From NCBI RefSeq assembly GCF_004359215.1, contig NC_090611.1, forward strand, positions 5,348,173 to 5,412,172: 64,000 bases of DNA. The letters run 5' to 3'. Position numbers and translations under genes: made by a program. Within the stretch, counting starts at the first letter, position 1, and the number at the start of each line of letters is the position of its first letter. The DNA comes from Bremia lactucae. Taxonomy: Eukaryota; Oomycota; Peronosporomycetes; Peronosporales; Peronosporaceae. Below are positions 306-62,448 of the stretch, in pieces. The notes beneath the pieces are model-generated. The model saw only the letters and a list, made by a program, of their open reading frames with translations. It did no database searches and was not told where the DNA came from.

Positions 306-314
306 CCGTCAACG

Positions 315-11530: not shown

Positions 11531-11623
11531 AATTAAAATAAAACCAACAACTGCTAATTTACAAAGAGAGACATTATGGTATTCTCTATCACTCTAGATC
11601 AGTCACTTTAGTGACTGTTGTTT

Positions 11624-13260: not shown

Positions 13261-13479
13261 AAGGGCGGGATGCCCTACAGGCGCGGACTCTGAAGCTAAG
13301 CCCTAAGTTCAGGGTTGTCGAACAAATGGGTAGCATAGTCTCTGAGGTCTCGAAATTTTGGACCTCAAGCCTGGTGGTCTATGACGCTTGAGTACGAGCT
13401 ATGACCATAAATTGGTCTTCCTTGTGATTTCGGGTACATTACAGGATTTTGTAAAAATCGCGGCTCTAAAACAGAGACC

Positions 13480-13854
13480 GACGATGTTTGAGTCGCTTTG
13501 CCAGGATGGCAAGAGAGAAGAGGTTTAGCGAACTGCGCCCTCGTAAAGTCTGAGGGAGCTCAAGTTGAACTCGCCTACAGTCTTAGTGACTTCTCTTGTA
13601 GAGAGGAGCTCCCAGTGCGAGGTATGAAGAGTCCATATGACCCCTTCCTAGGCATGCCATGGTTGGCAAAACACCAACCATGGATAGACTGGCGTACACG
13701 CACATTTGCTAACTCTACGCAGGACGCCGGAAATAATGTGCTCCTGCGAGAGGCCTATGCAACTGAAGTCGTTTACAACACGGTTGAGTGTGCGTTGATG
13801 GGATGTCAAACTTCAGCAAGTCCTACCCAGCTTGTCGAGTCTGGGGTACTATAA
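13480..13854 (+). pseudogene. Family A protease remnant
   Basis: Positions 13498-13854 form an open frame of 118 codons with DPFLGMPWLAKHQPWIDW. This is the second half of a gypsy retropepsin, where an (I/L)LGMPWL strand is followed by HxPWIDW. The catalytic D-S/T-G-A loop, expected near 13430-13470, is not intact. The following 13855-14440 is the protease-RT linker with broken frames. Confidence 0.7.
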
Positions 13855-18330: not shown

Positions 18331-18770
18331 GTTAGAATAATAGGTGAAGTTTGGAGGGCATTATAGCGCCATCACCTTCCCCATTCGCTCGCTGTGCTAT
18401 TCACTACTATGAGGTGATGGCAGCGGTGTCGACTCATTATAGTCGACAATGAGCGACGAATCTAAATCCTCACTGCGAAAGTGGGATTGATCATTAAGTC
18501 AAGTTAGAAGCGCGAGAGTAGCATCAGTAGCTGACGGCGTTGCAATTGAGGCACTACGCCACGGCGGCGTTTTATCGCTGCGCATGCGCTTCGGGCGTGG
18601 TTGTGTGGGTGTCTTCGCAGACGACCCATCAGCTTTGCCCCTCTTACAGTGGCATGTCAGGCGGCGGTTGATGACAACGATGTACGCACGCTGGTCGCTA
18701 AGAGTGGTTGAGAGGACTAAAAGCTGCGCGTAAAGCAGCTCGCTTTCCCCCGTTTCTCCCGTTAACGATT

Positions 18771-18788
18771 TTACAAAGAGGGGAATGG
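18771..18788 (+). promoter_or_regulatory. Polypurine tract of family A
   Basis: Purine-rich ACAAAGAGGGGAATGG immediately precedes the LTR start at 18789. Between the antisense ORF and this tract (18340-18770) I see no gene. A CTCATT/AATGAG hairpin lies near 18433. Confidence 0.6.
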
Positions 18789-19287
18789 TGTAACGGGCTA
18801 AAGTTGCCTTATGTCACACAAACTCATTGAGTAAACTTGGTGTACTTAACGGGATGGTCAATTACTTCATGTGAAGTACCTAGATCTGCCACTCGGATGT
18901 GGGTCACCCTTCTGTATTTGATGCACATAGGTGTATTCACATTGGAAGGATGACGGCTAGCGTCATCCGTGATCCGAGGTATTCAAAATTATACGCTCAC
19001 AATGTAGGGGTGCACATCTACAATGGTGACATCCATTAAATGCATGAAAGCTTTTATATTAAAATCGATTAAAATCTAAATCAGTCTTAAACTACTTCCT
19101 TTCCAACAAGTGCGCACGTGAAGCCGGGATCCCGCTTCCGTGACGACATTTGTACTAAGATACTTAGTTTGTTGGGTGAGGCAGCTTAGGCTCCCGCCAA
19201 CTATCTCACTGCACGCGAGAGAAGACGGTCAAAACCGCTTCCTCACTGTGCTTGAAGGTGTGTGCTAAGTAGCGCGTGGCTGCCTAA
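18789..19287 (+). repeat. Family A 3' LTR
   Basis: Begins TGTAACGGGCTAAAGTTGCC and matches 11956-12428, with an added segment of about 35 bases in the right part (GCACGCGAGAGAAGACGGTC). Followed directly by the second half of the interrupted family B LTR. Confidence 0.8.
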
Positions 19288-19423
19288 CTTTTACTTTTTC
19301 TCTATGCCTAAGCCTTTGTATTGACCTCTAGTAGCTAAGATTCTTAGCTACTTGTAATCTTCCTCTGCACGTCAGATTACGTGAAGTAATCGAGACACCT
19401 CACCTTCACTGTTATTAGTGTAG
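19288..19423 (+). repeat. Family B LTR, right part after family A insertion
   Basis: Resumes the LTR interrupted at 11955. It matches about 22705-22850 of the intact relative, including CCTCTGCACGTC and AAGTAATCGAG, and ends at the next LTR start at 19424. Confidence 0.7.
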
Positions 19424-19824
19424 TGTAACGGGGTATACAGATTTGTACTACTTCAGTACAAGTCCATTTCGCACTGCTTCAGTTGCGAGTGGTGCCTTAC
19501 GTTATTTCACGTACACTAGTACATGCAGAGGGAGACTTCTCTTTAAGGTAACTAGCTTAAAGAGGGTAAAATGAAAACTGTATTAATATAATTAAGTATC
19601 TCTTCTTTCTATCTGTTCACTCAAACTTAATTATAAACTAATACTAAACATGCAATTCAAATCTTATCTTGTATGTCTCTCACTTTTGCTTGCATCTATA
19701 GTTGATTAGTCTGCGGGATAAAGAGAAATAATGGCCTATACCTATTTATGGATAAGATTTCTGAACATTACTTTTTTAAGTAATATCCTCCAAATATTAT
19801 CTACCTTTTAGATAATATATTTAT
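19424..19824 (-). repeat. Family B LTR, minus orientation, running into the gap
   Basis: The reverse complement matches the LTR at 55980-56427. The stretch at 19424-19500 contains the conserved LTR hairpin (TTGTACT...AGTACAAG). It stops at the assembly gap, about 36 bases short of the LTR start. Confidence 0.8.
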
Positions 19825-19924
19825 NNNNNNNNNNNNNNNNNNNNNNNNNNNNNNNNNNNNNNNNNNNNNNNNNNNNNNNNNNNNNNNNNNNNNNNNNNNN
19901 NNNNNNNNNNNNNNNNNNNNNNNN
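19825..19924. other. Assembly gap of 100 N
   Basis: Exactly 100 undetermined bases, the usual size for a gap of unknown length. The LTR to the left and the pol fragment to the right belong to the same family in opposite orientations, so the join may be a misassembly. Confidence 0.99.
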
Positions 19925-21420
19925 TAGTCGATGTCAAGGGACTTAGAAAGTTCCTTGGTTCAGCAGCGTACTTGCACAAGTACTCTCGCAATTATGCATA
20001 GATGACAGTTCATCTCTCTCGTCTCTTGAAAAAAGACGAGAAATGGTTATGGAATGCTGATTGTCAGCGTTCGCTTGAAGGTATCAAGCAAAGCTTGATG
20101 CAATCGCCCATCTTGGCTATTGCAGATCAAGACAGACCATTCCATGTGGTCTATGACGCCAGCGATTTTGCAATCGGCTGTGCGTTAATGCAATATGACA
20201 CAGACGGCGCAGAGCGCGTCGTCTGCTAGCAGTCGCATCAGCTTCAACTAGCTGAACGCAATTACCCAGTGCATGAAAAGGAACTCCTTGCCACGAAATT
20301 TGCACTTAATTTAGGGCTACCTCTTGGGAGATAGAGCGTTCATCGTTTACGGAACATGCGTCCTTACACACGGCAGTAATCAGTCCACACCTCTCGCAAA
20401 GAATGCGAGAGGTGTGGACTGATAGCTGCCGTTCAAAAAATGGCGAGATGGTTTTCTTTCTTCGCGGAGAAAAAATTCTCCATGGAATATAAACCAGGAC
20501 GACTTAATGCCGTCGCAGATGCCTTTTCGCGCCGGCCCGATTCTCAGCCGGCCACGCAAAACAACTGTGAGGAGAAGCCCACTGTCGCAACAATTAACTG
20601 TTGGCATGAGCCTACTGTGGCAGCAATAAGTGTTCTGTCGTCAATATTACTTGACGACTTCAGAAGAGCTTATCAAGAAGATAAAGCTCTTAAGGGGTTG
20701 ATGGAATACCTAAAAAATCCATCCCGACAATTTTTAAGAGGATTGTCGAAATTGTATCGATCCTCAGCAGATCGATATACAACACGCAATAGTTTGATGT
20801 ATTATACAGCCATTGCTGGCGACACACCTCGTGTCGTCATCCCCAAACATAATAATTTGCGATTACGCATCATGTATGAGTGTCACGATGCACAAATAAG
20901 TGGTCATTGTGGACGTAAGAAGACATATTTCACGATAAGTCGCGACTTTTACTGGCCACTCCAGTATGAGTTCGTCCGCAATACATTGTTGTTTGCGAAG
21001 TTTACTAACGGATGAAACCCAGTGCTTCATCCCGTAATTCGTTACAACATCTGCCTGTTCCGGCAGAATGTCGGCAGTTCGTCTCAATGGACTTCGTCTC
21101 CGGACTTTCCGAAGATGACCACAAGAATAATGGTACTCTTGTGTTTCTTATCGTTTCAGCAAGATGGAACATCTTGCTGCAGTCTCGGAGTCGATCACAG
21201 CCAAAGGCTGAGCTCATGTATTTGTTGACATGATATTTCGACTTCATAGATTACCCCATGAAGTCAAAATACTATGTCTATCCCAAATTCACGGCGGAGT
21301 TTTGGCAATCTGGGTTCAAATCACTTGGAACACAATTAAAATCGTCAAAATCTGACTATCCTGAAATAGATGGCCAGACAGAACGTGCAAATCGTATTTG
21401 GCGACTTACGTTAACAGCCG
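19925..21420 (+). pseudogene. Family B pol: RT thumb, RNase H and integrase
   Basis: Starts in the RT thumb (LRKFLGSAAYLHKYS). RNase H is at 20060-20530 (PFHVVYDASDFAIGCALMQY, YKPGRLNAVADAFSRRPD), interrupted by a snap-back insertion at 20404-20440. The longest open stretch (20440-21015) runs into the integrase zinc domain (YECHDAQISGHCGRKKTYF). The core follows to about 21400 (SMDFVSGLSEDDH, then EIDGQTERANR) and ends abruptly. It lacks everything upstream of the RT thumb because of the gap. Confidence 0.8.
20370..20432. repeat. Snap-back hairpin inside RNase H
   Basis: Bases 20370-20398 pair with 20404-20432: 29-bp arms, two mismatches, loop AAGAA. The equivalent region of the related copy (about 58835-58885) has only the left arm followed by normal coding sequence. 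The right arm here is therefore an inserted inverted copy. Confidence 0.85.
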
Positions 21421-21429
21421 CACTCTCTA

Positions 21430-21957
21430 TTAACTGAGCTATAGAGGAAGCGCAGTGGATTTGGAGGAAGGAGAAAAATTCGGGTCCGCCTCATTCGCCA
21501 GACCCGAGTCAAGATCGTGACTTCGATTATAACCTCCATTAATTACGGGAAGACATTGATCACGAGCGATCCTGTCGTCGTGACTTAGTGACGACGGCCG
21601 ATTGTGTTTCCCGCGAACAGTTGAAATTTGTACGCAAGTTGCGGTTGATTAACTGGCGACCGAAAGGACACATCAGTCCCTTCAAAAAAACGAGCTGATG
21701 ACAGCTTGTCAAAAGATCTCTTCCTCGAAGAAAAGAGTAGATGGTCTCGTTCGTGAGAACCCGACTTGACCCGAGCCCATCTGGCTTTGGCTAAGGAGCA
21801 TCAGGCTTTGGCTCGGGGCCATCAGGCTTTGGCGGATACATTAGACCGTGCCAATTTAATTTGGAACCGGAAGAAGCCCCGTACTGATGGTACGGGCGGA
21901 AACGCCCAACATTAAACGTAGGATGCGAACGCATCGCCTTCGCGATGTAGTCTTTTT
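21430..21957 (+). pseudogene. Family B antisense ORF C-terminus, on an inverted segment
   Basis: Here the plus strand carries the C-terminal part of the antisense protein: EEAQWIWRKEKN, REDIDHERSCRRDLV, then LAKEHQALARGHQALADTL, DRANLIWNRKKPRTDGTGG. The minus strand of 21791-21957 reads the integrase C-terminus MRSHPTFNVGRFRPYHQY. Both strands are opposite to their expected direction in this plus-strand element, so the segment is inverted between integrase core (left) and the LTR-proximal part (right). The repeated HQALAxx units look like a coiled coil. Confidence 0.6.
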
Positions 21958-21975
21958 CCATGGAGTCATCACAAG

Positions 21976-22398
21976 ATGACTTCATCAGACCCTTTTCATT
22001 GTCACGTTAGAACCTGTAGGCTAACGAACGTGGTCCAGGATGATCTGGAGGCCTTAACAGTTTCCACCGAGTCGAACGATGACGTCGACTCGTGCCAGTC
22101 ACCGACAATGAGAGTAGCAGGTGAATTGTACCAGTCACCTCCAATTGAAGTAGGATGTACCGCACTCCCCACAGTAGACGTATTAGCCTTACTGGAACAT
22201 TTGCATCACCAGCAGCTGCACTGAGCCGCGCAGCTTCCTGTTTTGCGGCCTCGCAGGCTACGCGCACGGGCTTCGAAACCAAGCACAATACAAAGTTGGA
22301 ATTAAAGTAAAAACCAACAGGTGCTAATTTACATAGTTATAATTGTACTCTTTGTCACTCTACATCAGTCAATATGGTGACTGTTTTTAATGAGGTGA
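21976..22398 (-). pseudogene. Family B antisense ORF, N-terminal end
   Basis: A minus-strand frame from about 22288 reads PVRVACEAAKQEAARLSAAA and GDANVPVRLI, matching the alanine-rich N-terminal parts near 11480 (minus) and HAAAGDALLSLA at 49985 and 60925 (plus). It lies just inside the polypurine tract TGAGGTGA at 22391-22398. The frame breaks further in. Confidence 0.5.
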
Positions 22399-22894
22399 TG
22401 TAACTGAGTGGCCCGTTACATAGATATTATTACCTACACGAGGAATAAGAAATAATATTTCCTAATAGAGGAAATGAATAAAGAAGTACAAAATTATTAT
22501 CTTAATTTTGACTTAATAGTTCCAATGTTATTATACTGATAACATTGACACAATAAGACATAAGTTCTATTGATTGGTTGATTTAAGTTTAAAATTAACC
22601 CCCCGAATCGTGATTAGACGTTGTGCAAGGAGGTGCATTGCATAGTTAGTTATTAACATATCAAAGCCAGTCGATAAAAAATTGTAATGATAGAACTTAA
22701 ATATTAATACAGTTTACTTTTTTCCCTATTCTAAAGCCTAAGAATTTTCCTTTAGAAGCTAAAGACTTCAAAGCAACTTTAAATCTTCCCCTGCACGTCG
22801 TGTATGTAAAGTAATCGAGGCCCCCATTTTCACTGTAATCAGTGTGTGTTGACTATACTGCTGTCAGTACTAGCAAAAGCGCCCCGTTGCTCCA
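22399..22894 (+). repeat. Family B 3' LTR
   Basis: Begins TGTAACTGAGTGGCCCGTTACA and ends near GCCCCGTTGCTCCA. It matches the split LTR 11635-11955 plus 19288-19423 along its length. Plus orientation, preceded by a polypurine tract, so it closes the element to the left. Confidence 0.75.
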
Positions 22895-49403: not shown

Positions 49404-49838
49404 TGTAATGGGGCACTGCTGACTTGTACTGTTTCAGTACAAGTCCACTTTGCACTGCTTCAGTGCGAATGGTGCCTCACGTCACTTCACGTGCACTAGT
49501 ACGTGCAGAGGAAGACTCTCTGTAAATCACGTGCTTTAAAGAAGGTTAAAAGTAAACTGTATCTAAACTAATTAAGTTCTTCTGTCTCTATCTATTTTCT
49601 ACTATTTGAGTTAAATACTAATACAAAATGTAATATAGTCTTATCTGTTTCTCTCTTTGCGCGCGTCCAGTGGTGACTGGACCGCGGAGGAAGTAGATAT
49701 CAAGGCTTATATCTACCAATGATAAAGCTTTCGAATGTTACTGTGTCAAGTAATATTCCCAAAATATTATTTAGCTTTTAGATAAAATATTGATTAACAA
49801 CCTTTAAGTGTAATTTAATGTAACGTTACACCCCGTCA
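49404..49838 (-). repeat. Family B 3' LTR, minus, with polypurine tract
   Basis: The reverse complement matches 55980-56427 from end to end. The LTR start reads TGACGGGGTGTAACGTTACA, having lost the TAAC of TGTAACGGGG. Immediately inside, 49841-49852 is the minus-strand polypurine tract AAGGGGGGATGA. The plus strand near the other end carries a hairpin GACTTGTACTG/CAGTACAAGTC. The element to the right is therefore minus-oriented. Confidence 0.85.
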
Positions 49839-49923
49839 CCTCATCCCCCCTTGAACGAAAATTACTCTGACTATCATTGAATAGAGTGGTCACTATAAAA
49901 TACTTAAGTGAAAATGATATTGA

Positions 49924-50178
49924 TTGGTCAGAACCATCATTTCCAATTTTATCGCATCGGTAACGAGTCCATGCGGTGTGGTACATGCAGCCGCGGGCGA
50001 CGCATTATTGTCTCTTGCGACAGACAGGGCGTCTGCCGCACTATCATCATCTCCCGCAACACTCACTGTTGCGGGTGCACGCGGTGAGTCATCACGTGAA
50101 TGCGACCCCTCTTTAGCAGTCGACTATGAATCCGAGTGGACAAGATGGCCGACTCGGGAGAGTGGAACAATCGCCTGA
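49924..50178 (+). pseudogene. Family B antisense ORF, N-terminal segment
   Basis: A plus-strand frame of 84 codons contains VVHAAAGDALLSLATDRA and SAALSSSPATLTVAG, matched at 60917-61010 (AAVHAAAGDALLSLAADVLS). This places it upstream of, and in another frame from, the main ORF at 50346. Either the true start is here with frameshifts, or it is a separate short ORF. Confidence 0.45.
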
Positions 50179-50345
50179 ATGTCGTCAGGCGACTGACTAT
50201 GAGCCCTTGAATGAGGGGACTCAATCGAATAGTCATGCTAACAGCGTTATGTTGATTTGAGTCCGCAAGCGAACCTTGCGCTGCGCTGTGACATACTATA
50301 CTACACGACAACAGGTATAATTCAGGCAGTGCGTGACTCTATAGC

Positions 50346-51314
50346 ATGTTTGGTTCCGACGATGAGAACGATTCCCCATCGCCAGAACCGTCTCCCTTTG
50401 CTTCATTCGCACTGGTTCCTGTGCGTGGTGATGACGATGGCGTAAGCCATCGTAATAAAAGTTCTTGTGGTACCCCTGCTCCAGTGGGTACCACTCAGGG
50501 GAGTGAAGACAGTAAAATGTATCATCTCGCCTCTGAAAAGAAGCCGTGGCTTTTGTCAGAACGGCTAATCAATAGCTTGTCTGGAGAGACGACTCCTCAC
50601 AATAAATACCCCTTATTTATTGCGACAAAGCTACATGGCCTTGATCCCAGCGCGAAGAACTTTCGCGCTGAGGAACATTTTTATCTCGATGCTTTTCTTA
50701 AGCATCGATGGTCTAGTGGCAACAATAAGCGAGATAAAGTCTCGCTTATGCAAGCCTTGAGCGCGTTCATTCGCAATGTCAAAGATATTGGACGCGAAGC
50801 CTGGCTTCAAAAACTTAACGCAATTCGCGTTAAGTTTAGGAAACGAACTCCAACCGGTGCAAAGTATAAATTGCATCGGTTGTCACGTGAGGCTGGGCTT
50901 CCATGCCTCACGTTGGGTGATCCCTGTCCGTGTTGTGTTGACAACTCGAAGAGGGTAAAAGGGGATGTTTATTTCCTTTCTTCGCCCTGGGGAAGGACTC
51001 GCATCTCTATTGAGATGCGGGATGCGATTGACGTTTTTTGCGATCGATTTACATGCGCCAGGGGCGCGTGTATTCCGATGGGCCTTCTGCTTCATCGGAT
51101 GGGTCTCATCCTACTGACGGACGAGGCTCTCAACGTCAACTACCAGCTGGGAACGAGGCTCCCAGCTGCCATGCGAAGGTGGATATCCGCGCCAGCGAAC
51201 AAGATAAGTCGTCAACTGCCCCTTAACATCACAGTGGTTTACGATACGTTCCACAAGAAAGCGTTGACCACCGTGGGAATCCACCAATGGTTGCGATGGG
51301 GGAGGGAAAATTAA
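50346..51314 (+). CDS. Family B antisense ORF, most intact copy (322 residues)
   Basis: The longest unbroken copy of the protein encoded opposite to pol in family B. It starts MFGSDDENDSPSPEPSPFAS, an acidic Ser/Pro-rich N-terminus. A basic/helical middle follows (ASEKKPWLLSERLINSLSGE, AWLQKLNAIRVKFRKRTPTG, AKYKLHRLSREAGLPCL), then a Cys cluster (GDPCPCCVDNSKR), SSPWGRTRISIEM and CARGACIPMG. From about residue 250 to the end it is antisense to the chromodomain on the other strand. No signal peptide or membrane segment is seen. Copies at 9361, 10600 and 60753 share the same motifs. Function is unknown: an RNA-binding or regulatory role for the basic and Cys-rich parts would be speculation. A pol-strand tail exists opposite but is less conserved. 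Confidence 0.65.
   Translation: MFGSDDENDSPSPEPSPFASFALVPVRGDDDGVSHRNKSSCGTPAPVGTTQGSEDSKMYHLASEKKPWLLSERLINSLSGETTPHNKYPLFIATKLHGLDPSAKNFRAEEHFYLDAFLKHRWSSGNNKRDKVSLMQALSAFIRNVKDIGREAWLQKLNAIRVKFRKRTPTGAKYKLHRLSREAGLPCLTLGDPCPCCVDNSKRVKGDVYFLSSPWGRTRISIEMRDAIDVFCDRFTCARGACIPMGLLLHRMGLILLTDEALNVNYQLGTRLPAAMRRWISAPANKISRQLPLNITVVYDTFHKKALTTVGIHQWLRWGREN
51095..51290 (-). pseudogene. Family B chromodomain on the opposite strand
   Basis: The minus strand reads GGQRFLVERIVNHCDVKGQL, TTYLVRWRGYPPSHGSWEPR, SQLVVDVESLVRQ, stop, DETHP. This is a well-preserved chromodomain, with a stop replacing Tyr before DETHP, belonging to the minus-oriented pol of this element. It overlaps the last 70 codons of the plus-strand ORF, so both strands are coding here. 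Confidence 0.8.
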
Positions 51315-51324
51315 TTCGACCTAA

Positions 51325-51515
51325 GTGTCGGATCTAGAGTCGAAGATCGACAATTTCGACCACTACCTCCATGTGTTGGCGGAGGGTCTTGACTACGAGC
51401 GCAGCAAGCGTCACTCTTGTTGGAACAGACGGTGCAGGCTCACCGTATCGAACGGTTGGAAGACCATTCAAGTGCGCTCTCGATGTTCGAGTACGAACGA
51501 AAGTATCACTTGGGG
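51325..51515 (+). pseudogene. Family B antisense ORF, coiled-coil part
   Basis: After the stop at 51314, the next frames read SDLESKIDNFDHYLHVLAEG, LDYERSKRHS and, after a shift, LLEQTVQAHRIERLEDHSSA, LSMFEYERKYH. The last part is also found on the minus strand at 60725-60620 (AHYIERLENRPKSAYSMLEY, ERKYHDLRDEL). Homology stops at about 51515, where the pogo-like sequence begins. Confidence 0.6.
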
Positions 51516-51590
51516 TTGGTGTTCTTTGTGAAGAACAAGGTGTGACAATTGTTTGCTGACTTTTATTCCCACTCTTTGCAACACAGAGAG

Positions 51591-53366
51591 ATGTCGCAAG
51601 CTCGCCTTACCAATGCTCAACGCCTGCAAATTTGGAAACACAAGGATACCAATCGCAGCATGAGCCAGCAGGCTTTGGCTGCCTGGGCGACAATGGAGTT
51701 CAACCTCACTAAGGGAGTGGCTCAGGCTTCTATCAGCAACATCATTAAGAAACGTGCTGAGCTGGAGGCAATGGACTCTAGCAGCGTTAGCGCCTTGTCC
51801 AGCACCCGGTGGTGAAAAGGATAGAAGCCATCTGGATTCTACAGTGCCAGCATCGTGGGGTTATCATCACCGGGGATCTGATCTGCGCAAAGGCTCAGAG
51901 ATTTGCCGAATCAGTGAAATCCCCGGATGACGCCATCAAGTTTTCTCACGGATGGCTCCAAAAGTTCCAGCAACGCCACAAACTCTGTGCTATCCGCATC
52001 CACGGCGAAAGCGGATTGATTGATGTGGAGGCTTTGAACGAGGCTCTACCTGAGCTGAAGACGGTTATTGCCGGGTGCTTTGTCCGTGATGTTTTGTACA
52101 ACATGGATGAGACTGATAAGCTTGGTTTTGCCTTTGTTTGAGATGGATTATTTTTGCTCAAGCAGCTTTCACAGGACTTTTTTACAGCATGACACCTGAG
52201 GAAAATCGCTTAAGCAGACGTTGACGGGCACAACAATGACATTAAATTGATCTTCATTTATGTTTGCACTTGAATTTAGAATTTGACACCTGTTATTCAG
52301 ACACGCATCACCATAGCTTACACAGCGAATGCTGATGGGTCTGATAAGCTCCAGCCATTCTTCATCGGACGAGCCAAAAAACCGCAGTGTTCAACAAGAA
52401 GACAGGAGAGCAATTGGAATTCTTTTACAGACACAACGTGAAAGCATGGATGACCGGACAATTTATCAGGAATGGCCTATCAATGTTGACAAAGCTATGA
52501 AGGTATGTTTGCAACCTTGTGCCTAGGGATTGACCTGTTAGTCTTGCAAACATCCGACAAGTGCTTTATGATCAAGGCAGATGGGTCCTCCTCTTGATCG
52601 ACATGCGCCATCTCACATTGTGGATGACCTGTAGCTGACCAACGTCAAGGGTCAGCCCCTTCCGCCCAACGCTACCTCGAATGTTCAACCAATGTATGCC
52701 AGCATAATTGCCGCTTTTAAGAGGCATTACCGGCGCTACCATCTTCAACACGCGCAGGATTGCGACGAATGAGGTGAGATTATTGGTAACATTTACAATG
52801 TTGACCAGCTTACAGCCATTACCTGGTCTCTTTTTGCCTGGACAGAGATTTTGGCAGCACGGTCAAGAGCTGCTTCAATCACACCGGGCTGTTTGCAAAG
52901 CCTGCCACGATTTCCATTCCCAGGAGGAAGTAGAGAGCATGGAGGGCGAGAAGGAAACTAAGAAGGAGGAGAGAGCTCTGGAGCAGGACCTGGAAACAAG
53001 CTCAAACAGCTGCCGCTCCGCAATTCGATGGCCATTGAGGAGCTTCTCAACCCTTTCGAAGAAGACAAAAGTGCTCAGCCAGAACTCAATGATCAAGAGA
53101 TTCTGGACGCAGTGCAGGAGGAGGCGGAAGGGAACGAAGAAGCTGAAGCAGAGAAGGAGGCAATTACAGACAGATTCACCAACTCCGAGACAATAACCAT
53201 CTTAGGTAGTGCCTCTACCTTGCTTGATCTGTCCCAGGAAACCCGCCGTTTTGCCTACAAGCTACTCCGCAGCTTTCAGGCTAATCACCTTCGATTTATG
53301 AAATATTACATTACGGCATTGATCGACTTTTGTCAACTTTGCGCAGCATTTTTAACTTTATTATAA
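51591..53366 (+). pseudogene. Pogo/Tigger-like DNA transposase, inactive
   Basis: ATG at 51591 starts an N-terminal helix-turn-helix (LTNAQRLQIWKHKDTNRSMS, QASISNIIKKRAELEAM). After a frameshift comes a CENP-B-type second HTH (SHGWLQKFQQRHKLCAIRIH) and the first catalytic Asp in YNMDET (about 52100). A decayed segment with a probable intron acceptor precedes TRITIAYTANADGSDKLQPF (about 52295). Another probable intron starts GTATGT at 52503 and ends near 52573. LLLID (about 52590) carries the second Asp. At the third site QPMYASIIAAFKRHYRRYHL has Tyr where QPMD is normal. An acidic tail (53028-53366) follows. The element interrupts family B sequence; I could not identify its terminal inverted repeats or TA duplication. 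Confidence 0.75.
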
Positions 53367-53389
53367 TCTGTGGACGAATGGAAGTCGAA

Positions 53390-53620
53390 GAAGACTCCCT
53401 TTTAAATGGTTCGTCGAGTTGGACGATGCCATATGGGCTCGTCACATGTTCAACGAGTAAATGCAAGTCGCATTTGCTCAATCAAATTTGGCAGGTCGTA
53501 CCAAAACTTGTGCACTAGGCCTTAAGATGCGTGACCCATATGTCTTTGGGTCGCTAGAATTTTTGAAGCCCGACTCAAACAGACGTTTGAACCACCTAGG
53601 TCTGAGTTGAGAGCTCTTGG
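53390..53620 (+). pseudogene. Family B gag fragment
   Basis: Matches 56830-57060 closely: FVELDDAIWARHMFNE, MQVAFAQSNLAGRTKTCALG, LKMRDPYVFGSLEFLKPDSN and RRLNHLGLS, with stops. This is the capsid region of the family B Gag. It follows the pogo-like sequence directly and is in plus orientation, whereas the family B 3' end to the left is minus-oriented. Confidence 0.75.
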
Positions 53621-55755
53621 CTTACACTGGGATCCTCCCCCTCATTTTTTTTAAAAAAAATCCCTCTACAAATATATATCTGGCTTCTCGGCTATTAGCT
53701 ATAAGTTATAAGTTAGCGACCACAGAACGACCACGGTGGAAGTCAAATCCTATAAGTTAGCGGGGTTATAAGTTTTTGAAGATAAGATATCAGAGGGAGG
53801 ACTGCATGTATATTTATCCACTAATGGGTAGAAACGCCTATTCCTCGGTCGAGTCCGGTTGTTGAACAGAGCTTGACACTGTCCGTGAAGGCTCTCGGGG
53901 ATGTCTTGCCAGCTGGCGTTGGCATTCTATCAGACGTGTGCCGTGAAGTTGGGAGTCCGCTCGCCAACTTTCCCGCTTCCGTATAGCTCTGAGTTGCCTC
54001 ATATTGGTTTCCCAAAACTTCGCAACGCTGCTGTTGATAGGCACGACCGCGTGCTGGAATGTCACTCGGATTTGTTGAACCCCCAGGGTGGTGATGCATA
54101 TGCTGCTCACGATGAATTAGATACGTTTCTATATTGATTCGTAGGCGGCCGCCTCATTCGGATGATCTCGGCGCAGCTGTTCCATTATTGGTCAAAGAAG
54201 CGTGGGCATGCCTTGATTCCCATTGCTCTCCAGTCCAGTGGCAGGTGAGTTTCTGCCAACAGGCTCGCGCGCAGGGGCACTTCTAGAAGTTTTGTTCCAG
54301 CGTCTCTTTCATCCCGCGACGCAGTGAAGCTTACGGCAACTACTGTCACGTTCCCGGCCTGCATGGTGCAGGTCGAGTTGCCCTATGCAACGCGATACGC
54401 GACCCACTCTTGGTACTCCGTAAGCATGTTGACATTATCTCTGACCGCTGGAGGCGGCTACTCGAGAGCCGCGGCCTGCCATGCACTTGCCCGCGCCGAG
54501 CTGTGGAGGGCCCGCAACGTCTCCGTCAGTGGAAGCTCCGATCCTTTATACCCATAAAACAGTTGTTTCTTCAGTACGAAAAGAACGCGTTTGCTTGCAG
54601 TGGAGTCAGGTACGCTCCACGGCAATCCATGTAGGAGCGGATGCGCCTGAAAAACGATGCATCCAGCCGCATGTGCCTTCCGGAGCTTTCGACAGTCAGC
54701 TGCCGTGCTAGGAACATCGGTGTTGGTTGTAGCGATGCGCCAGTGGATGCCATTACTCCCTTGCTCAGGTCAATCGTACTTCGCTTGGCGGAGTCTGGGG
54801 ATATGTTGTACGCCTGAGAAGTCGATGTGGGTGACGTGGCACTATGAGCCGCTGTGCTCTAAGGCGTTTACCGACTTTTAATCTCGAAGCGCTAAGGAGA
54901 ATCGCGATACCCCAGCGTCGCAGCTTAGATTGTCGATACATAGTCTCACCAGCCGCCGGAATGATAAGCGAGTATGTCCGATCCCTCCAACCCGTCGCAC
55001 CTGAAGATCTGCTACGCGCAGGGCCGACTTTTGTCGTATTTCTTGAGCAGTAAGACGTGTCCAGTCTGGTCACGCATCCAAGAATTGTTAGTCCGAAAAA
55101 AAAGTACGTGGACCAGAAGGCCGTATATTCTGGTTTCAGCGCAGGTGGCCAGGGAGCGGCCCTGAAAGCTCCACTAACCATTCCTCCGACGTGGTCCAGC
55201 TAGTAGCCCCTCCCGTCAGGTCAGTGAGCTCGCGCTTTTACTGCCGCTGCCCCTCAACCCGAGCAGGCAGTGTTGGCCGCAATTAGGGTCCGAGTAATTG
55301 ATGTATACGACAGCCGGAGATCCGTTGCCTTCGGGTCGTGTCTGGGCGCGATGAAACTCCTAGCTAATCACCCTGAGGTACTCCGCGAAAGGCCCAAGCC
55401 TGCCACGCTATCGAATAGATGTCTTGGCGTTAAGTTAGCCACAGGATGGCATGTTTGACTCACTGCGTCTTGCGCGCAATGAGAATGGACGCCAGACCTA
55501 CCCCGCCCGCTCGTTTAAGAGTGTACAACAGAGCTGGATCAACTTTGTGTCGGCTATCGTCCGTGATGGTTTTACTGTCGCTTATCAATATGATGATGGG
55601 ACCGTACGAGCGCTACCAATTTTGTGTTGTCATCATCTAAAACTAGTTGTCTAATCACGCTGGGTCCAATAGAATAACTATACAAATGCAAATTGTCAAT
55701 TAGTCTTGATTGGCTCTAATGTTATGGCAATGTATCCACGTTATGGCGTCGAGAT
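53621..55755. other. Degenerate DNA of unknown origin
   Basis: Starts AT-rich with two ATAAGTTAGCG repeats (about 53710 and 53755), then becomes GC-rich. Many short frames on both strands, none over 140 codons. A plus-strand segment RRLIRMISAQLFHYWSKKRG (about 54150), a KKYVDQKAVYSGFSAGGQGA stretch (about 55100) and NGRQTYPARSFKSVQQSWIN (about 55490) read like pieces of one decayed coding sequence. I do not recognise the family. Confidence 0.35.
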
Positions 55756-55940
55756 TGTAACGGGATATACTGTTACATAACTTATTTCCATCAAGAGGAA
55801 TTATACATCTTATTCCCTGTAAGAGGTAAATAAAAAGACGTATAAAATTGAGGAAATGCTTACGGCATTCCATTTCGGCTTACGGCACCCCACATAAATA
55901 ATGATCGATCAGAGTAGATATCTAACACCGTAACGGGGCA
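55756..55940 (+). repeat. Short LTR-like fragment
   Basis: Begins TGTAACGGGATATACTGTTACA, like a family B LTR start, and contains another TAACGGGGCACC near 55931. The intervening 170 bases (AAGAGGTAAATAAAAAGACG) resemble the 22399 LTR start region. Probably a deleted LTR. Confidence 0.5.
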
Positions 55941-55979
55941 CCTTTCGCTAGAACTGACAACAGTACTTATGAGCCAACA

Positions 55980-56427
55980 TGTAACGGGGTGTATCGTTAC
56001 ATGAAATTAACACTTAAAGGTTGTTAATTAATATATTATCTAAAAGGTAGATAATATTTGGAGGATATTACTTTAAATAGTAATGCTCAGAAATCTTATC
56101 CATAAATAGGTATAGGCCATTATATCTATTTATCCCGCAGACTAATCAACTGTAGATGTAAGCAAAAGTGAGAGACAGATAAGATAAGATTTCAATTGCG
56201 TGTTTAGTGTTAGTTTATAATTAAGTTAGAGTTAACAGATAGAAAGAAGAGATACTTAATTATATTAATACAATTTTCATTTTACCCTCTTTAAGCTAGT
56301 TACCTTAAAGAGAAGTCTTCCTCTGCACGCACAAGTGTACGTGAAATAACGTAGAGCACCACTCGCAACTGAAGCAGTGCGAAGTGGACTTGTACTGAAG
56401 CAGTACAAGTCGTAGTGCCCCGTTACA
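55980..56427 (+). repeat. Family B 5' LTR
   Basis: TGTAACGGGGTGTATCGTTA...GTGCCCCGTTACA, 448 bases, with inverted terminal sequence TGTAACGGGG/CCCCGTTACA. Internal perfect hairpins include GACTTGTACTG/CAGTACAAGTC (56387-56411) and CTCTTTAA/TTAAAGAG near 56290. Confidence 0.9.
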
Positions 56428-56429
56428 CC

Positions 56430-56438
56430 TGGTAGCAC
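56430..56438 (+). promoter_or_regulatory. Primer-binding site
   Basis: TGGTAGCAC begins two bases after the LTR end. It is complementary to a tRNA 3' end of the form GUGCUACCA; initiator-methionine tRNA is the common primer for TGGTAGC sites. The assignment to a specific tRNA is inferred. Confidence 0.6.
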
Positions 56439-56490
56439 TTTGTAGTCCGTCCAAGGACCACATTTCCTTCATCTAACATGGACATGTTAG

Positions 56491-57480
56491 ATGATAGTGG
56501 GAATACGCATCACGTTTTCCGTGAAAGCTACTCCTTTTTTAAGTGACATAGAAAGGAGTGCGGTCGAACGAATGAGTTTGACCGTAGGAAACGATGCAAT
56601 CTTGGCAATGCTGTCCAATTTGGACAGAGATGCCCTCCTTTCAGCCATCGCCAAGTTCATACAACATGAACTTGACGAGGCGAAGGAGAAGGTAGCCTTG
56701 CTGAATCAGCAAGGCTCTCAACAGGCAGAACTGTTAGGTTACAACAGGTACAGACCTCTGTACCTGGGACGACGCACACGCGTCGTCCCGAAGCCCTAAA
56801 GATTGACATCTCTATGTAAAGGGGACTCCCTCTTAAGATAGTTCGTCGAGTTGGGCGATGTCATAAATGCTCGTCACATCGTCGACGAGCAAATGCAAGT
56901 CGCATTTGCTCAATCAAATTTGGCAGGTCGTGCCAAAAAATTTGGGCACTAAGCCTTAAGTTGCGTGACCCATATGTCGTTGAGTAACTAGAGACTTTTA
57001 AATCCCGGCTCAAACAGACGTTTGAACTGCCTAGGGCTAAGTTCAGAGCTCGATCAGAGATTCTGGAACTCAAGCAAGGTAATCGTGATGAATGTTCTTG
57101 CTTATGCCCAGCACATACGTCTGTCAACGAGTTGTATTACGAACAACTTAGCTCATGAACACACGTTAATCACGGTGTTCCCGCAAGGTCTTACGGATGG
57201 TCCCGTAAAGACCCACCTGTTCCGCTTAGAACAGGATACGCTTGAAGAAGCAATATCCGCTGCGGAACAGGAGGACTTTAGCTTGAGACAGGCTCAAGCT
57301 AGTTCGTCATCATATCGTCCTCCAAGACGACACGAGCTTGGAGGTCCAGAACCTATGGACCTCTCTTATGTCGAAAGCGAGACCTCGCTTTTCGAACAGT
57401 AAGCGATTGCAGAAATGCAATCGCTGTCAAAAGTTAGGTCACTACGCTCATGCGTGAAGTGCCCCACACCCAGTACCGAT
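56491..57480 (+). pseudogene. Family B gag
   Basis: 56572-56799 encodes MSLTVGNDAILAMLSNLDRD and HELDEAKEKVALLNQQG. After a stop comes the capsid (about 56830-57060), then 57090-57402 with AYAQHIRLSTSCITNNLAHE, TVFPQGLTDGPVKTHLFRLE and PEPMDLSYVESE. A stop precedes a CNRCQKLGHYAHA zinc knuckle (about 57418) that ends in a stop where the last Cys is expected. The region holds many perfect hairpins, for example arms of 12 bp at 56469-56494 and 10 bp at 57402-57425. Confidence 0.85.
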
Positions 57481-57718
57481 AAGTACTGAACGTAATGATG
57501 GACTGAATGTCAAAAAGGGCAACGGTCGCGGGTCCAACGTTGTTACAAAATCGCAACAACGAGGCGGACCGCCAAAAAAACGGTCGGGGTCAGTAGGGGC
57601 GCAACGCCCTACTGATCCAGCAACCTCGAGAGAATTTGCAAACCTCTCGACTAAAGTCGCTACAGACACAGAATCATTATGTGTCTCTGCACCTGGCGAT
57701 GAGGTATCACTCATCACC

Positions 57719-58483
57719 TTGAAGTTAAAAGTGACAAATGATTTGTCACTTAGAGCCCTAGTGGACTGTGGGGCGTCGAATCACTTTATTCGTTGCCATT
57801 CGCTAGAGGGCCGTAGGCTTAAATATGTTGAGCGCGACATCCCTTCAACGAGGATGACGGTGCGTCTAGCGACAGGCGCATCGATAACAATACTGAAACG
57901 CGTAGTGAAATTTCACTACACGTTATAAGTATTACAGTACGCTGATGATTTCATCGTACTGGATTTGGATGACAAATTTGATGTCATCCTAGATTTACCC
58001 TGGCTCAGAAAATATGAGCCAAGAGTCAGCTGGCAGCATCGATCTGAAAAGATGCCTACCACTTGTTCATCAGATGGCCATCTGATAAACGTCTTGGAGC
58101 GTCCACAGGCGTTTAAATGTACTAAGAGTGAGTGCGATGGCCTCACTTGTGGTACAGTCGTTAGTGCGACTGCACAAGATCACAATGTGATGACTAATCA
58201 CACTGTGGAGTCAGCTGCCGGCGGCTGTGCGAATGCACAGGCAGCGCCGAAGATCCACCACTCGAAGAAGTCGAGCGGATTGAGACATGAATGTACGCCT
58301 AGCAGGCGACATTCAAGCAGAATACCGGTTGCCCCAAAGGGACAACACGATGATCCTAGGTCGAGTAGAGAGTCGACCGTAGAGGACCCGACTGTGATAG
58401 CGCAAGCACAGTCGGAAGACATTGAGGGAAAAAGACCCCACGTACTTGAGGCTGGCCAGTTTCAGTCGATTGATGGGACTTAG
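57719..58483 (+). pseudogene. Family B protease and linker
   Basis: 57719-57928 contains LRALVDCGASNHFIR with the catalytic Asp-Cys-Gly-Ala (usually Asp-Ser/Thr-Gly) and TVRLATGASITILKR, ending at a stop. 57965-58483 continues with DKFDVILDLPWLRKYEPRVS and a long low-complexity linker. The linker joins directly to the RT thumb near 58470, so fingers and palm (about 900 bases in relatives) are deleted. Confidence 0.8.
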
Positions 58484-58975
58484 ACAGTTCCTTGGAATAG
58501 TGGCGTACTTGCACAAGTACTCTCGCAATTATGCAGAGATGACAGTTCATCTCTCTTGTCTCTTGAAAAAAACGAGAAATGGCTATGGAACGCATGTTAT
58601 CAGCGTTCGTTTGAAGGTATGAAGCAAAGCTTGATGCAATCGCCCATCTTGGCGATTGCAGATCAATACAGACCATTCCATGTGTCTGTGAAGCCAGCAA
58701 TTTCGCAATCGGCTGTGCAAAATGCAATACGATACAGACGGCGCTTAGCGCGTCGTCTGTTATCAATCACGTCAGCTGAAACTTTGCACAGCCGATTGCA
58801 GATAGACCGTTCATCGTATATACGGACCATGCGTCATTACGTCAGGCCGTAAACAGCCCACACCTCTCGCAAAGAATGGCAGGGTGGCTGTCCTTCTTTG
58901 TGGAGTATGATTTTTCCATAGAATATAAACCAGGACGACCTAGTGTCGTCGCTGATGCGTTCTGACGTCGACCCG
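58470..58975 (+). pseudogene. Family B RT thumb and RNase H
   Basis: LRQFLGIVAYLHKYSRNYAE, a small frameshift, NEKWLWNACYQRSFEGMKQS, LMQSPILAIADQYRPFHV. An internal deletion then joins the RNase H start to IADRPFIVYTDHASL-like sequence. It ends YKPGRPSVVADAF near 58965, with a stop replacing Ser at the RRPD junction. Confidence 0.8.
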
Positions 58976-59108
58976 AATTCAAGCCGGCTGTGCACTCTAA
59001 CAATGAAAATAATCCCACTGCTGGAACATCCATTACAAGTGTTCCGTCGCTAACTTGTTTGATGACGTAAAGACAGCCTACATAGAAGATAAAGACCTTT
59101 TGCGTTGA

Positions 59109-60725
59109 ATGGATCATCTGATGAATCCATCCATTAAATCATTTAAAGATTTACCGGCTTTATATCGATCGTCATCCGATCGATACACAACACGCAACGA
59201 CTTACTGTACTACACAGCTGTTGCCGGCGACACTCCACGTGTCGTCGTCCGAACTCATAATGATTTGCGCTTGCGCATCATGTATGAGTGTCACGATGCA
59301 CCAAAAAGTGGGCATCGTGGACATGAAAAAACTTATCTCACAGTAAGTCGCGACTTTTACTGGCCCCGTTAGTATCACTTCGTGCGCAGGTACATTCGTG
59401 CTTGCGAGGTATGTCGACGGATGAAGCCTAGCCCTTCATCTTTTGCACCTTTAAGAACTTTCCCACTTCCGGCTGAATGTTGGCAGTCCATATCTATGGA
59501 CTTCGTCTTCGGATTTTCCAAAGACGTTCACAAAAACAATGGAATCCTTGTTTTTGTAAACAGATATAGCAAGATGGTACATCTTGTTGCAGTACCAGAG
59601 CTGATCCTGGCTCCGGATTGTGCCCGTTCTTTATCGACACGGTATTCAAACTGCACTGTTTAACCCGTGAACTGGTTTTGGATAGAGATTTACGGTTCAC
59701 GACGGAGTTTTAACAATCCGTGTTCCGATCTTGCGGAACTCGGCTGACTATGTCAACTTTTAATCATTCAGAGACAAATGGCCAGACGCAACGCGTAAAT
59801 CGCGACCTTGAAGAGATACTTCGAGGTTACGTCCAATCGTATCCGAATAAGAGCGAGTCTTTACCGATGGTCGAATTCGCCATCAACAATTCGGTGCATG
59901 CGTCTACAACGCATACACCGTTCTTCGTGAATGGCTTACGCCATCCACGCATACCCACCCATTTAGAGGGATCCTCTAGTTTGGGGGGGGGGCTCGCACG
60001 AGAAAGCCATTTCTGGCTCATGCTCACCACGCTTCGAAGTTAACAATGACACGAGTGATGTCGAAGCAATCGACATCGAAGATGAGAAAGATCTCATAGC
60101 AGTGCGCTTTGTGCGCACTGGAAAAGATAAAACAAATGAGTCAGCAGAAAAAAAAATTCTGCTGGCTCGAGAATCCGTAATCCGTTTCGTATAGGATTTC
60201 ATTGCTAACGCAAAGGACCGTTAGAAACGGGACGCAGACAAACATGGAAGAGCAAATGTTCTTTTATTGAAAATTAATGACCTAGAACTACTCTCTACGG
60301 TAAACTTACCTAAGCGTGTAGTTACTAATGTGGGTAGCAGTAAACTACTACCCAAGTTCATTGGGCCACTCCGTGTACTGCATCGCGGAGGCAATGCGTA
60401 CCCAATAGAATTACAACATAGGATGCGTTTGCATCCTACGTTTTACTTTGGTCGGCTCCGCCCGTACCATCAGTACGCGGTTTCTTCCAAGGACGGATCT
60501 GACCACCCTTGTCAAGAATCCCTAAAAGATTCTTGTGGTCACGAACCAGATTCTCATTCTGGATCTGGAGATTCTCATGTCGGGTCCGAATATCCTCGAA
60601 ACCGCGATGAGCTGACGACAGCTCATCACGAAGATCGTGATATTTCCGTTCGTACTCCAGCATTGAGTACGCGCTCTTCGGACGGTTTTCCAACCGTTCG
60701 ATATAGTGAGCTTGCTAAGTGTTAA
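59109..60725 (+). pseudogene. Family B integrase
   Basis: Zinc domain 59109-59440 (LRIMYECHDAPKSGHRGHEK, CEVCRRMKPSP). Core start SISMDFVFGFSKDVHKNNGI with the first Asp, then NRYSKMVHL. The second Asp region (59670-59760) is frameshifted. ETNGQTQRVNRDLEEIL and VEFAINNSVHASTTHTPFFV follow. C-terminal part 60267-60480: LPKFIGPLRVLHRGGNAYPI, MRLHPTFYFGRLRPYHQY. The sequence then enters the linker and is cut at 60716 by the inversion; the chromodomain lies in the inverted block. Confidence 0.85.
60436..60725 (-). pseudogene. Antisense coiled-coil region overlapping the pol linker
   Basis: The minus strand is open for about 95 codons: IERLENRPKSAYSMLEYERK, YHDLRDELSSAHRGFEDIRT, RHENLQIQNENLVRDHKNLL, then WKKPRTDGTGG and a stop. 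The heptad-like spacing of Leu, Ile and charged residues suggests a coiled coil. It is the C-terminal part of the antisense ORF, and its upstream part is in the inverted block to the right. Confidence 0.6.
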
Positions 60726-60752
60726 ATTCATTTAACGACACCCCCCGTTACA
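60717..60752 (-). repeat. First 36 bases of the 3' LTR, inverted
   Basis: The reverse complement reads TGTAACGGGGGGTGTCGTTA and ends AACACTT, exactly the LTR part missing from 62045. The minus-strand polypurine tract AAGGGAGGAATGA adjoins it at 60753-60765. Confidence 0.85.
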
Positions 60753-62044
60753 TCATTCCTCCCTTAAACGACAATCACTTTGAATGTTATTAAATAGAGT
60801 GGTCATTATAAGACCACTTAATTGAAAACGATGTTGATTGTCAGAACCATCATTTTCAATTATATTGCATGGTTAACGAGTCCATGCGGTGTGTGAATAG
60901 TGCGGCGCCTTCGGCTGCGGTACATGCAGCCGCGGGCGACGCATTATTGTCTCTTGCGGCAGATGTTTTGTCTGCCGTAGTATCATCTTCCCCCACAACA
61001 CAAACTGTTGCGGTCTCCAGTGCCGTCACCCGCACTTATTTCTGTGCGTGGTGATGACGATGGCGTAAGCCATCGTAATAACAGTTCTTGTGGTACCCCT
61101 GCTTCAGTGGGTCCCACTCAGGGGAGTGCAGACAATAAAATGTCTCGTCTTTCCCCTGAGAAAAAGCCGTGGCTTTTGCCGAACGGCTAGTCAGTAGCTT
61201 GTCTGGAGAGACAACTCCTCACAATAAATATCTTTTATTTATTGCGACAAAGCTACATGGTCTTGATCCAGCGCGAAGAACTTTTGCGATAAGGAAGATT
61301 TTATCTCGATGCTTTTCTTAAGCATCGATGGTATAGTGGCAACAACACGCGAGATAAAATCCCGTTAATGCAAGCCTGGAGCGCATTTTTTTCCCAATGT
61401 CAAAGACATTGGATGCGAAGCCTGGCTTCAAAGTCCTAACGCGATTTGCGTTAAGTTTGAGGAAAGAACTCCAACCGGTGCAAGGTTTAAAATTGCATCG
61501 GTCGTCTCGTGAGGCACGACTTCCATGCCTCACGTGGGGTGATCCGTGTCCATCTTGAGTCAACAATACGAAACGTGAAAGGGGATGTTTACTCCCTTTC
61601 ATCACCCTGGGGAAGGGCTCGCATCTCTATTGAGATGCCGATGCGATTGACGTTTTTTGCAATCGATTTACACGCGCCAGGGGCGCGCGTTTTTCAATGG
61701 ACCCTCTAATCCATCTGATGAGTCTCGTTATACTAACGGACGAGGCCCTCAACGTCAACAACCAGCTGGGAACGAGGCTCCCATCTGTCATGCAAAGCTG
61801 AAAAACCGCGCTTGTTAACCAGATAACTCGTTCGCTGCCCCTTCACATCACGGTGGCTTTGAATACGTTCCACAAGGAGCCGTTGGCCACCGCGGAACTC
61901 CACCAAAGGTTGTATTGGAGGAGGTAAAATTAGATCCGAACCCTGTGTCGGATCAAGAGTCGAAGATCAACAAATTCGACCGCTACCTCCATGTATTGGA
62001 GGATGGTCTTGAACACGCGCGGTAAGCGTCACTCATTGGAGTAA
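60753..62044 (+). pseudogene. Family B antisense ORF on an inverted segment
   Basis: Parallel to 49840-51410 in sequence and orientation. Pieces include AAVHAAAGDALLSLAADVLS (60917), VRGDDDGVSHRNNSSCGTPA (about 61045), SPEKKPWLLPNG and a stop (61190), then GARFK, SSPWGRARISIEMP and HAPGARVFQW in several frames, to VLEDGLEHAR near 62025. The chromodomain is on the minus strand at about 61715-61905 (GGQRLLVERIQSHRDVKGQR, SQLVVDVEGLVR). More decayed than the copy at 50346. Confidence 0.65.
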
Positions 62045-62448
62045 AGCTTGTTAATTAATATATTATCTAAAAGGTAGATAATATTTGAAAATATTACAAC
62101 CCATAGTAATATTCGGAATGCTTATCCATTGGTAGATACAGGCCATTATATCTACTTGCTCCGCGGTCCAGTCAGCACGGGACGCGCGCAAAGAGAGAGA
62201 CAGATTAGATTTTATTTCATGTTCTGTATTAGTTTATAATTAAGTTAGTAGTAAATAGATAGAAACAGAAGAGCTTAATTATATTGAATACAGTTTACTT
62301 TTAACCCTCTTTAAAGGAAGTGTATTAAAAAGAGTCTTCCTCTGCACGTATTAGTGCACGTAAAGTGACGTGAGGCAACCACTTGCATTGAAGCAGTGCG
62401 AAGTGGACTTGTACTGAAGCAGTACAAGTCGGCAGTGCCCGGTTAACA
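62045..62448 (+). repeat. Family B 3' LTR lacking its first 36 bases
   Basis: Starts AAAGCTTGTTAATTAATATA, exactly where the inverted fragment leaves off, and ends GTGCCCGGTTAACA. Contains the 11-bp-arm hairpin near 62407-62431. It ends 89 bases before the dynactin start codon, in the same orientation as that gene. Confidence 0.88.

What the first reader, a model, noticed from the sequence alone, without database searches (positions are those of the whole stretch)
49404..62448. A retrotransposon family saturated with short perfect hairpins
Family B sequence is packed with perfect inverted repeats. Arms/loops I verified base by base: 50434-50453 (8 bp), 50648-50670 (9), 50686-50708 (9), 50725-50749 (10), 50812-50836 (10), 50886-50912 (8), 51000-51019 (8), 51144-51168 (9), 56387-56411 (11), 56469-56494 (12), 56766-56789 (9), 57279-57301 (9), 57319-57344 (8), 57402-57425 (10), 57729-57751 (11), 58069-58086 (9, perfect palindrome), 58388-58415 (9), 58635-58660 (10) and, in another copy, 21157-21179 (10). 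With equal base frequencies, about 0.1 hairpin with 8-bp arms and loops of 3-11 nt is expected in the 735 bases from 50434 to 51168, and at least eight are there. They run through LTR, gag, protease, RNase H and the antisense ORF, so no single gene function explains them. I did not notice such density in the ABC gene, the dynactin gene or copia-1. The RNA would fold into a string of small stems, and both DNA strands could do so. Possible meanings: a mutational process that perfects palindromes (template switching), or selection for a structured genome that affects packaging, RNase resistance or Dicer processing.
Basis: partly seen in the sequence, partly recalled or inferred. Interest (0 to 1): 0.92.

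Follow-up and report, generated by a model that had tools for sequence, protein, structure and literature searches.

The report
Retrotransposons folded from end to end
A family of jumping genes in what is probably a downy-mildew genome carries about fifty times more short perfect hairpins than shuffled sequence does, even inside its protein-coding parts, and this is likely a selected, genome-long folding like that of some RNA viruses rather than a string of accidents.

Summary
All 19 listed hairpins are perfect. The two family B stretches hold 54 hairpins (arms of at least 8 bp, loops 3-12 nt) against about 1.0 in dinucleotide shuffles; the ABC and dynactin genes hold 0 and the copia stretch 1. 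In open pol frames of two family B copies, 10 and 11 hairpins stand against 0.41 in codon-preserving shuffles. The effect is wider than hairpins and than family B. Predicted folding energy exceeds shuffles by about 35% over family B on both strands, by 0% over copia, by about 0% over two host genes, and by 8-27% over other Ty3-related stretches. A second Ty3 family (E) folds strongly with almost no perfect local hairpin of 7 bp. Between diverged families paired changes in stems exceed slid controls. I read it as a GORS-like ordered structure in LTR retrotransposons, probably kept by selection while elements replicate. Two features are odd for RNA selection: folding is equal on both strands, and wobble pairs are not favoured. 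Palindrome-making template switching stays a live rival. Only one genome could be read; no probing or small-RNA data were available.

The parts
49404..49806 (-). LTR of family B copy 1 (element in minus orientation), contains the 11-bp hairpin 49421-49445
   Evidence: self-blast 84% to 62042-62440; hairpin list
49807..51416 (-). region between integrase and 3' LTR of copy 1, pol sense = minus; holds the densest hairpin run
50434..51168 (.). 735 bases with 10 perfect hairpins (arms 8-11, loops 4-11)
50337..51311 (+). 325-aa open frame antisense to pol; its first part belongs to a conserved antisense protein (full homologues about 460-564 aa)
   Evidence: 45 homologues listed, named ones from Hyaloperonospora arabidopsidis and Peronospora matthiolae
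51114..51320 (-). chromodomain (PF00385, E 2.2e-13), pol sense
55981..56427 (+). 5' LTR of family B copy 2
56491..57399 (+). presumed gag region (by position only; the one frame of it scanned has no Pfam match), 9 hairpins
57458..58480 (+). protease-like fragments (weak, below cut-off: Asp_protease_2 E 0.059, RVP_2 E 0.023)
58464..58962 (+). RNase H region (RT_RNaseH E 3.8e-5, 24.2 bits against a cut-off of 24.8)
59109..60442 (+). integrase region (Integrase_H2C2 E 4.9e-10; Tf2-1 SH3 E 5.5e-10 in 60225-60722)
60716..62041 (-). segment between integrase and 3' LTR, inverted in place in this copy relative to the five copies compared
62042..62445 (+). 3' LTR of family B copy 2, hairpin 62406-62430
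55957..62448 (.). 40 hairpins of arm >=8 against 0.95 expected; predicted MFED 0.35/0.36 on the two strands (55981-62445)
18400..22711 (.). related copy (C): 15 hairpins in 18400-22550 against 0.35; MFED 0.27/0.28 in 18700-22711
7500..13700 (.). stretch with partial matches to family B and copy C, 12 hairpins against 0.7
   Evidence: three frames scanned gave no Pfam match

Best explanation
Family B is a chromodomain Ty3/gypsy-type retrotransposon whose sequence is tiled with short perfect hairpins, and this genome-long folding was probably kept by selection while the elements replicated. Shown: the hairpins, their excess over dinucleotide and codon-preserving shuffles, their absence from the two host genes, the copia stretch and the one LINE piece read, their sharing by many copies, and an excess of paired changes between diverged families. 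Predicted: the folds themselves. Inferred: that selection maintains them, mostly through synonymous codon choice, as in the genome-scale ordered RNA structure (GORS) of some RNA viruses. The most likely benefit, untested, is that tightly self-folded transcripts with stems of at most 12 bp are poor partners for antisense RNA, Argonaute guides and Dicer-type enzymes, while each stem stays too short to be taken for long dsRNA. The equal folding of both strands suggests that sense and antisense transcripts, or the cDNA too, are under this pressure.
For: Codon-preserving shuffles: 10 and 11 hairpins against 0.41. Folding energy z -11.8 sense and -12.3 antisense for each of two family B pol frames, -14.3 and -7.3 (sense) for two family H RT pieces, -6.5 to -8.2 (sense) for three family E pieces; +1.4 ABC, +1.5 DCTN, +2.3 LINE. 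Mean MFED 0.35 over family B, 20 of 23 fragments above 0.2, against 0 of 20 copia and 0 of 15 host-gene fragments. Between families, double changes at stem pairs are 85 of 1722 (4.9%) against 2.8% for slid pairs, and 42 of the 85 restore Watson-Crick. Clearest case: in 9 hairpins of copy C compared with L034 the two arms change almost equally, asymmetry 0.09 against 0.38 in control placements. Over the nine comparisons, 8 of 51 strongly changed hairpins differ in one arm only, within the control range of 0.07-0.19, so one-arm conversion is not in general excess. Diversity among 30 copies is lower in stems (pi 0.065) than in loops (0.097; p 0.036). Arms of 8, 9, 10 and 11 bp occur 20, 19, 10 and 5 times among the 54; with loops of 0-12 there are 60, one of them with 12 bp. 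Family E folds with helices of 9 bp at most and few perfect local hairpins.
Against: GU is not favoured over AC: 96 against 118, 72 against 85, 21 against 59 events. Antisense folding equals sense folding (B 0.46/0.42, E 0.26/0.28, H 0.37/0.38), whereas 24 simulated sequences selected for sense folding gave 0.46/0.32. No excess of double changes among the close family B copies (1.1% against 1.0%; 3 against 4.1 expected). Arm asymmetry is below control in only 4 of 9 comparisons and above it in 5. Stem against remaining columns is not significant (p 0.08). No preference for the codon register that would ease synonymous pairing. Families F and G are barely folded (sense z -0.8 and -2.5), so the trait is not needed by all Ty3 elements here; F nevertheless has 3 hairpins against 0.14-0.25 in two copies. 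Against the shield idea: in Phytophthora infestans inverted and tandem repeats give the most small RNA per megabase (PMC3804510, passages). Many copies are broken, so decay dilutes every test.
Confidence: 0.5

Rival explanations
1. A mutational process makes the hairpins: the element's reverse transcriptase, or repair of its cDNA, switches template at quasi-palindromes and copies one arm from the other, so that palindromes are perfected without any benefit.
For: Watson-Crick pairing without wobble preference and equal folding of both strands are what DNA-level copying would give. In-place inversions in three copies (window 60716-62041 and L045 with joints exact to a few bases, L038 with one exact joint) and a 20-bp fold-back in copy C (20379-20423) show that strand switching or inversion happens. 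From L034 to family D, 5 of 14 strongly changed hairpins differ in one arm only, control 13%.
Against: Family E is strongly folded with almost no long perfect arms. Over all nine comparisons one-arm change is not in excess (8 of 51). Apart from the 20-bp fold-back, most hairpins align without indels to hairpin-less relatives (by eye). Folding holds inside open frames. In family H, amino-acid identity in stem codons equals that outside in two of three comparisons for each of two references and is lower in the third; codons half in stems are lower in all.
Confidence: 0.3
2. Selection acts on single-stranded cDNA or on extruded DNA hairpins rather than on RNA, for example to protect the cDNA or to guide integration or recombination.
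For: Poor in wobble pairs and strand-symmetric.
Against: I know of no Ty3/gypsy step that needs this (recalled); folding runs through the whole element rather than clustering at its ends.
Confidence: 0.1
3. Many separate protein- or Gag-binding stem-loops, as in RNA phages with dispersed packaging signals (recalled).
For: Hairpins of similar size spread through the element.
Against: No shared stem or loop sequence stands out (by eye); many positions differ between families; family E has few such hairpins.
Confidence: 0.05
4. Chance, base composition or amino-acid content.
For: None found.
Against: Dinucleotide and codon-preserving shuffles.
Confidence: 0.01

Closest known systems
Genome-scale ordered RNA structure (GORS) of positive-strand RNA viruses (PMC7642675, abstract part and passages seen)
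   Same: Series of short stem-loops through coding sequence, folding energy well beyond shuffles, duplexes kept short (that paper: often interrupted to avoid more than 14 bp; here at most 12 in family B), pairings that drift between relatives, paired sites less diverse (there clear, here weak).
   Different: Here in an LTR retrotransposon. Mean MFED 0.35 in family B against 0.075-0.107 for HCV and up to 0.234 for whole virus genomes in that paper (fragment size alike, shuffling not matched; that paper also reports a local peak above 0.5). Strand-symmetric and poor in GU pairs.
Plant Retand/Grande-type Gypsy elements with antisense ORFs between pol and 3' LTR (PMC11963269, passages seen)
   Same: Antisense protein gene between pol and 3' LTR, shared by related elements.
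   Different: Here it overlaps a chromodomain on the other strand and has no significant Pfam match; the plant report is of TRP28 proteins in non-chromoviruses, and the passages seen do not mention hairpin tiling.
miRNA-like structures in maize transposons (PMC10760457, passages and start of abstract seen)
   Same: Local secondary structure in LTR retrotransposons compared with small RNAs.
   Different: Local regions; the passages seen describe shuffling of nucleotides, not of codons.

Membership tests
GORS | Folding energy beyond shuffled controls across the genome | tested here: met
   20 of 23 family B fragments above 0.2; codon-preserving z -11.8
GORS | Series of short stem-loops in coding regions, long duplexes avoided | tested here: met
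   arms 8-12 bp in family B; family E helices of 9 bp at most in four pieces folded
GORS | Structure formed by the genomic RNA strand | tested here: inconclusive
   both strands equally foldable; no GU preference in family B
GORS | Paired sites less diverse than unpaired | tested here: inconclusive
   stem pi 0.065, loop 0.097 (p 0.036), rest 0.0875 (p 0.08)
GORS | Chemical probing agrees with prediction | not testable with these tools
   no RNA data
Ty3/gypsy chromovirus | LTRs, RNase H and integrase in pol order, chromodomain after integrase | tested here: met
   chromodomain in pol sense in the five copies compared
Ty3/gypsy chromovirus | Ty3-type reverse transcriptase | not testable with these tools
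   no RT was found in the window copies and parts of the family B loci read N; related families E, F and H have an RT whose best solved match is Ty3 RT, 4ol8
Template-switch palindromes | Inverted duplication or one-arm conversion relative to hairpin-less relatives | tested here: inconclusive
   one clear fold-back in copy C; one-arm changes 5 of 14 against D but 8 of 51 over nine comparisons

The most novel reading that the evidence does not exclude
Several Ty3/gypsy lineages of a downy mildew have turned their whole coding sequence into a strand-symmetric, Watson-Crick-rich folded genome, reached by two architectures (perfect 8-12 bp hairpins in B and H; branched stems with almost no 7-bp hairpin in E), as a general shield that keeps sense and antisense transcripts from pairing with each other and with small RNAs.
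Probability: 0.25. Interest if true: 0.88.

Novelty: new variant of a known kind. Interest (0 to 1): 0.72.

Why it matters
Genome-long folding is discussed for RNA viruses and linked there to persistence. Finding it, at greater predicted strength, in retrotransposons would extend it to mobile elements and give many natural copies in which its making and decay can be followed. The contrast between strongly folded (B, H, E) and nearly unfolded (F, G, copia) families in one genome makes the question of its purpose testable with small-RNA and probing data.

Tried and rejected
Wobble test for RNA selection: no GU excess in family B. In family E distinct GU singles exceed AC for each of the eight reference copies (for example 31 against 20, 26 against 16), but these counts share events. 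Compensation among close copies: none. Codon register: no clear bias, 7/7/5 in L046. Relatives in viral contigs: none confirmed. Antisense protein in Pfam: nothing above cut-off; the labels 'Core-binding (CB) domain' and 'RxLR effector candidate' on single homologues are a source's names; I found no support for the first and did not test the second.

Papers: ten searches showed no report of genome-scale folding in LTR retrotransposons of oomycetes in their listings; that is a statement about those capped listings only. Passages seen: PMC7642675, PMC6570648, PMC11963269, PMC3804510, PMC10760457; none was read whole.

Change after re-checking: confidence of the best explanation lowered from 0.52 to 0.50, because all nine comparisons taken together are mixed.
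Full report
What was checked. A full scan (arm >=8, loop 3-12) finds 92 in the window, 54 of them in the two family B stretches, where 20 dinucleotide shuffles give means of 0.05 and 0.95. ABC 0 (0.35), DCTN 0 (0.15), copia 1 (0.85), and the 51315-55956 stretch within the given range 0 (0.55). Innermost loops in four element stretches of the window peak at 5 nt and become rare beyond 10. Among the 54, arms of 8, 9, 10 and 11 bp occur 20, 19, 10 and 5 times.

What carries them. The window lies on a 6.07-Mb contig of a 115.9-Mb, 220-contig genome. Homologues of the antisense protein in Hyaloperonospora arabidopsidis and Peronospora matthiolae point to a downy mildew; Bremia lactucae is my inference from genome size and Gypsy content (Gypsy figures from passages of PMC6570648; its gapped assembly size recalled). 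Family B is a Ty3/gypsy-type element: LTRs, RNase H (just under cut-off), integrase zinc-binding and SH3 domains and a chromodomain. In other copies the stretch 50337-51311 runs antisense to integrase, between integrase and an LTR. So it is a 3' region with a chromodomain on one strand and, on the other, a conserved protein whose fuller homologues have about 460-564 aa.

Copies. 2,556 candidates exist, of which 40 were scored; all 40 gave a long match (at least 864 of 978 bases). The 30 loci fetched carry 14-26 hairpins in about 4 kb each. In the ~1 kb 3' region 15 hairpin sites (arm >=7) are each present in 16-25 of 30 copies and 7 further sites in fewer than 5; median pairwise identity is 92%.

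Coding controls. In the open RNase H-integrase frames of L046 and L034, 10 and 11 hairpins stand against 0.41 in 200 codon-preserving shuffles (maximum 3), with none in ABC (0.5) or DCTN (0.1). Folding energy against 40 codon-preserving shuffles: z -11.8 sense and -12.3 antisense in both; ABC +1.4, DCTN +1.5, LINE +2.3 sense.

The phenomenon is wider than hairpins. In 181 fragments of 350 nt, MFED averages 0.35/0.36 on the two strands of family B copy 2 and 0.35/0.37 in copy 1, 0.27 in copy C, 0.20 in the relic 236-3103 (integrase core and chromodomain), 0.08-0.14 in four other Ty3-related stretches, 0.04-0.05 in 51315-55956, 0.01 in 31773-34052, 0.00 in copia (20 fragments), -0.01 in ABC (12), 0.01 in DCTN (3). 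Single fragments elsewhere also rise, for example 0.45 near 24.5 kb and 0.52 near 40 kb. RT pieces of other families, 15 counted: family E (8 copies) MFED 0.15-0.30 with no perfect hairpin of 7 bp in the 695-nt pieces; the longer pieces hold one in L047 and one, of at least 8 bp, in L056. H (2) 0.42 and 0.33 with 6 and 7 such hairpins; F (4) 0.03-0.05 with 2-3; G (1) 0.08 with none. Best solved match of E, F and H is Ty3 RT (4ol8); G was not checked. Four other pieces were left out of this count: a LINE (L049) and three with N (L052, L054, L055). Of these L054 and L055 are hairpin-rich (3 and 2 of arm >=8), L049 and L052 are not.

Origin tests. Between diverged families many hairpins sit at homologous places with different letters. 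Double changes at stem pairs are 4.9% against 2.8% for slid pairs (arm >=7) and 4.2% against 3.1% (arm >=6); at arm >=7, 42 of 85 are Watson-Crick; within the close B-like group there is no excess, 1.1% against 1.0%. Arm asymmetry is below control in 4 of 9 comparisons (from C to L034 0.09 against 0.38) and above it in 5; one-arm changes are 8 of 51 in all, 5 of 14 from L034 to D. Stems are less diverse than loops among 30 copies, p 0.036, but not clearly less than the rest, p 0.08. GU singles do not exceed AC singles in family B. GU makes up 2.8-10.9% of predicted sense pairs in the B, C and E pieces and 10.0-13.8% in F, LINE, copia and the two genes. Simulated selection of random coding sequence for sense folding leaves antisense folding lower (0.46/0.32; antisense higher in 2 of 24), while B, E and H show 0.46/0.42, 0.26/0.28, 0.37/0.38.

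Reading. Selection for folding explains the codon-level excess, the excess of paired changes, the short stems and family E. It does not by itself explain strand symmetry and GU poverty. Those fit selection on both strands, or on DNA, or a mutational origin. Inversion or strand switching does occur in these elements: in-place inversions were seen in one of two window copies (60716-62041) and in L038 and L045 among 16 ten-kb loci; L041 also shows two LTRs in opposite orientation side by side. A 20-bp fold-back lies in copy C. I therefore give selection 0.5 and the mutational rival 0.3.

Limits.

Noticed in passing
window 50337-51311 (+) and 60439-60714 (-): Conserved protein (fuller homologues about 460-564 aa) encoded antisense to pol between integrase and 3' LTR, overlapping the chromodomain on the other strand; 45 homologues listed, named ones from downy mildews, no significant Pfam match. 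Possible coding on both strands.
   Followed up: partly
window 60716-62041; L038:6233-6851; L045:7241-7390: In-place inversions of internal element segments; joints exact to a few bases in the window copy and L045, one exact joint in L038; in the window copy one joint is the LTR edge.
   Followed up: partly
window 20379-20423 and 40494-40543: Two long perfect palindromes (arms 20 and 23 bp); the first is a fold-back insertion absent from the nine relatives aligned.
   Followed up: partly
window 41213-41402: Tandem duplication of 95 bp, 89% identical.
   Followed up: no
window 24501-24850 and 40251-40600: Single 350-nt fragments with MFED 0.45 and 0.52 outside family B; the second covers the 23-bp palindrome.
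   Followed up: no
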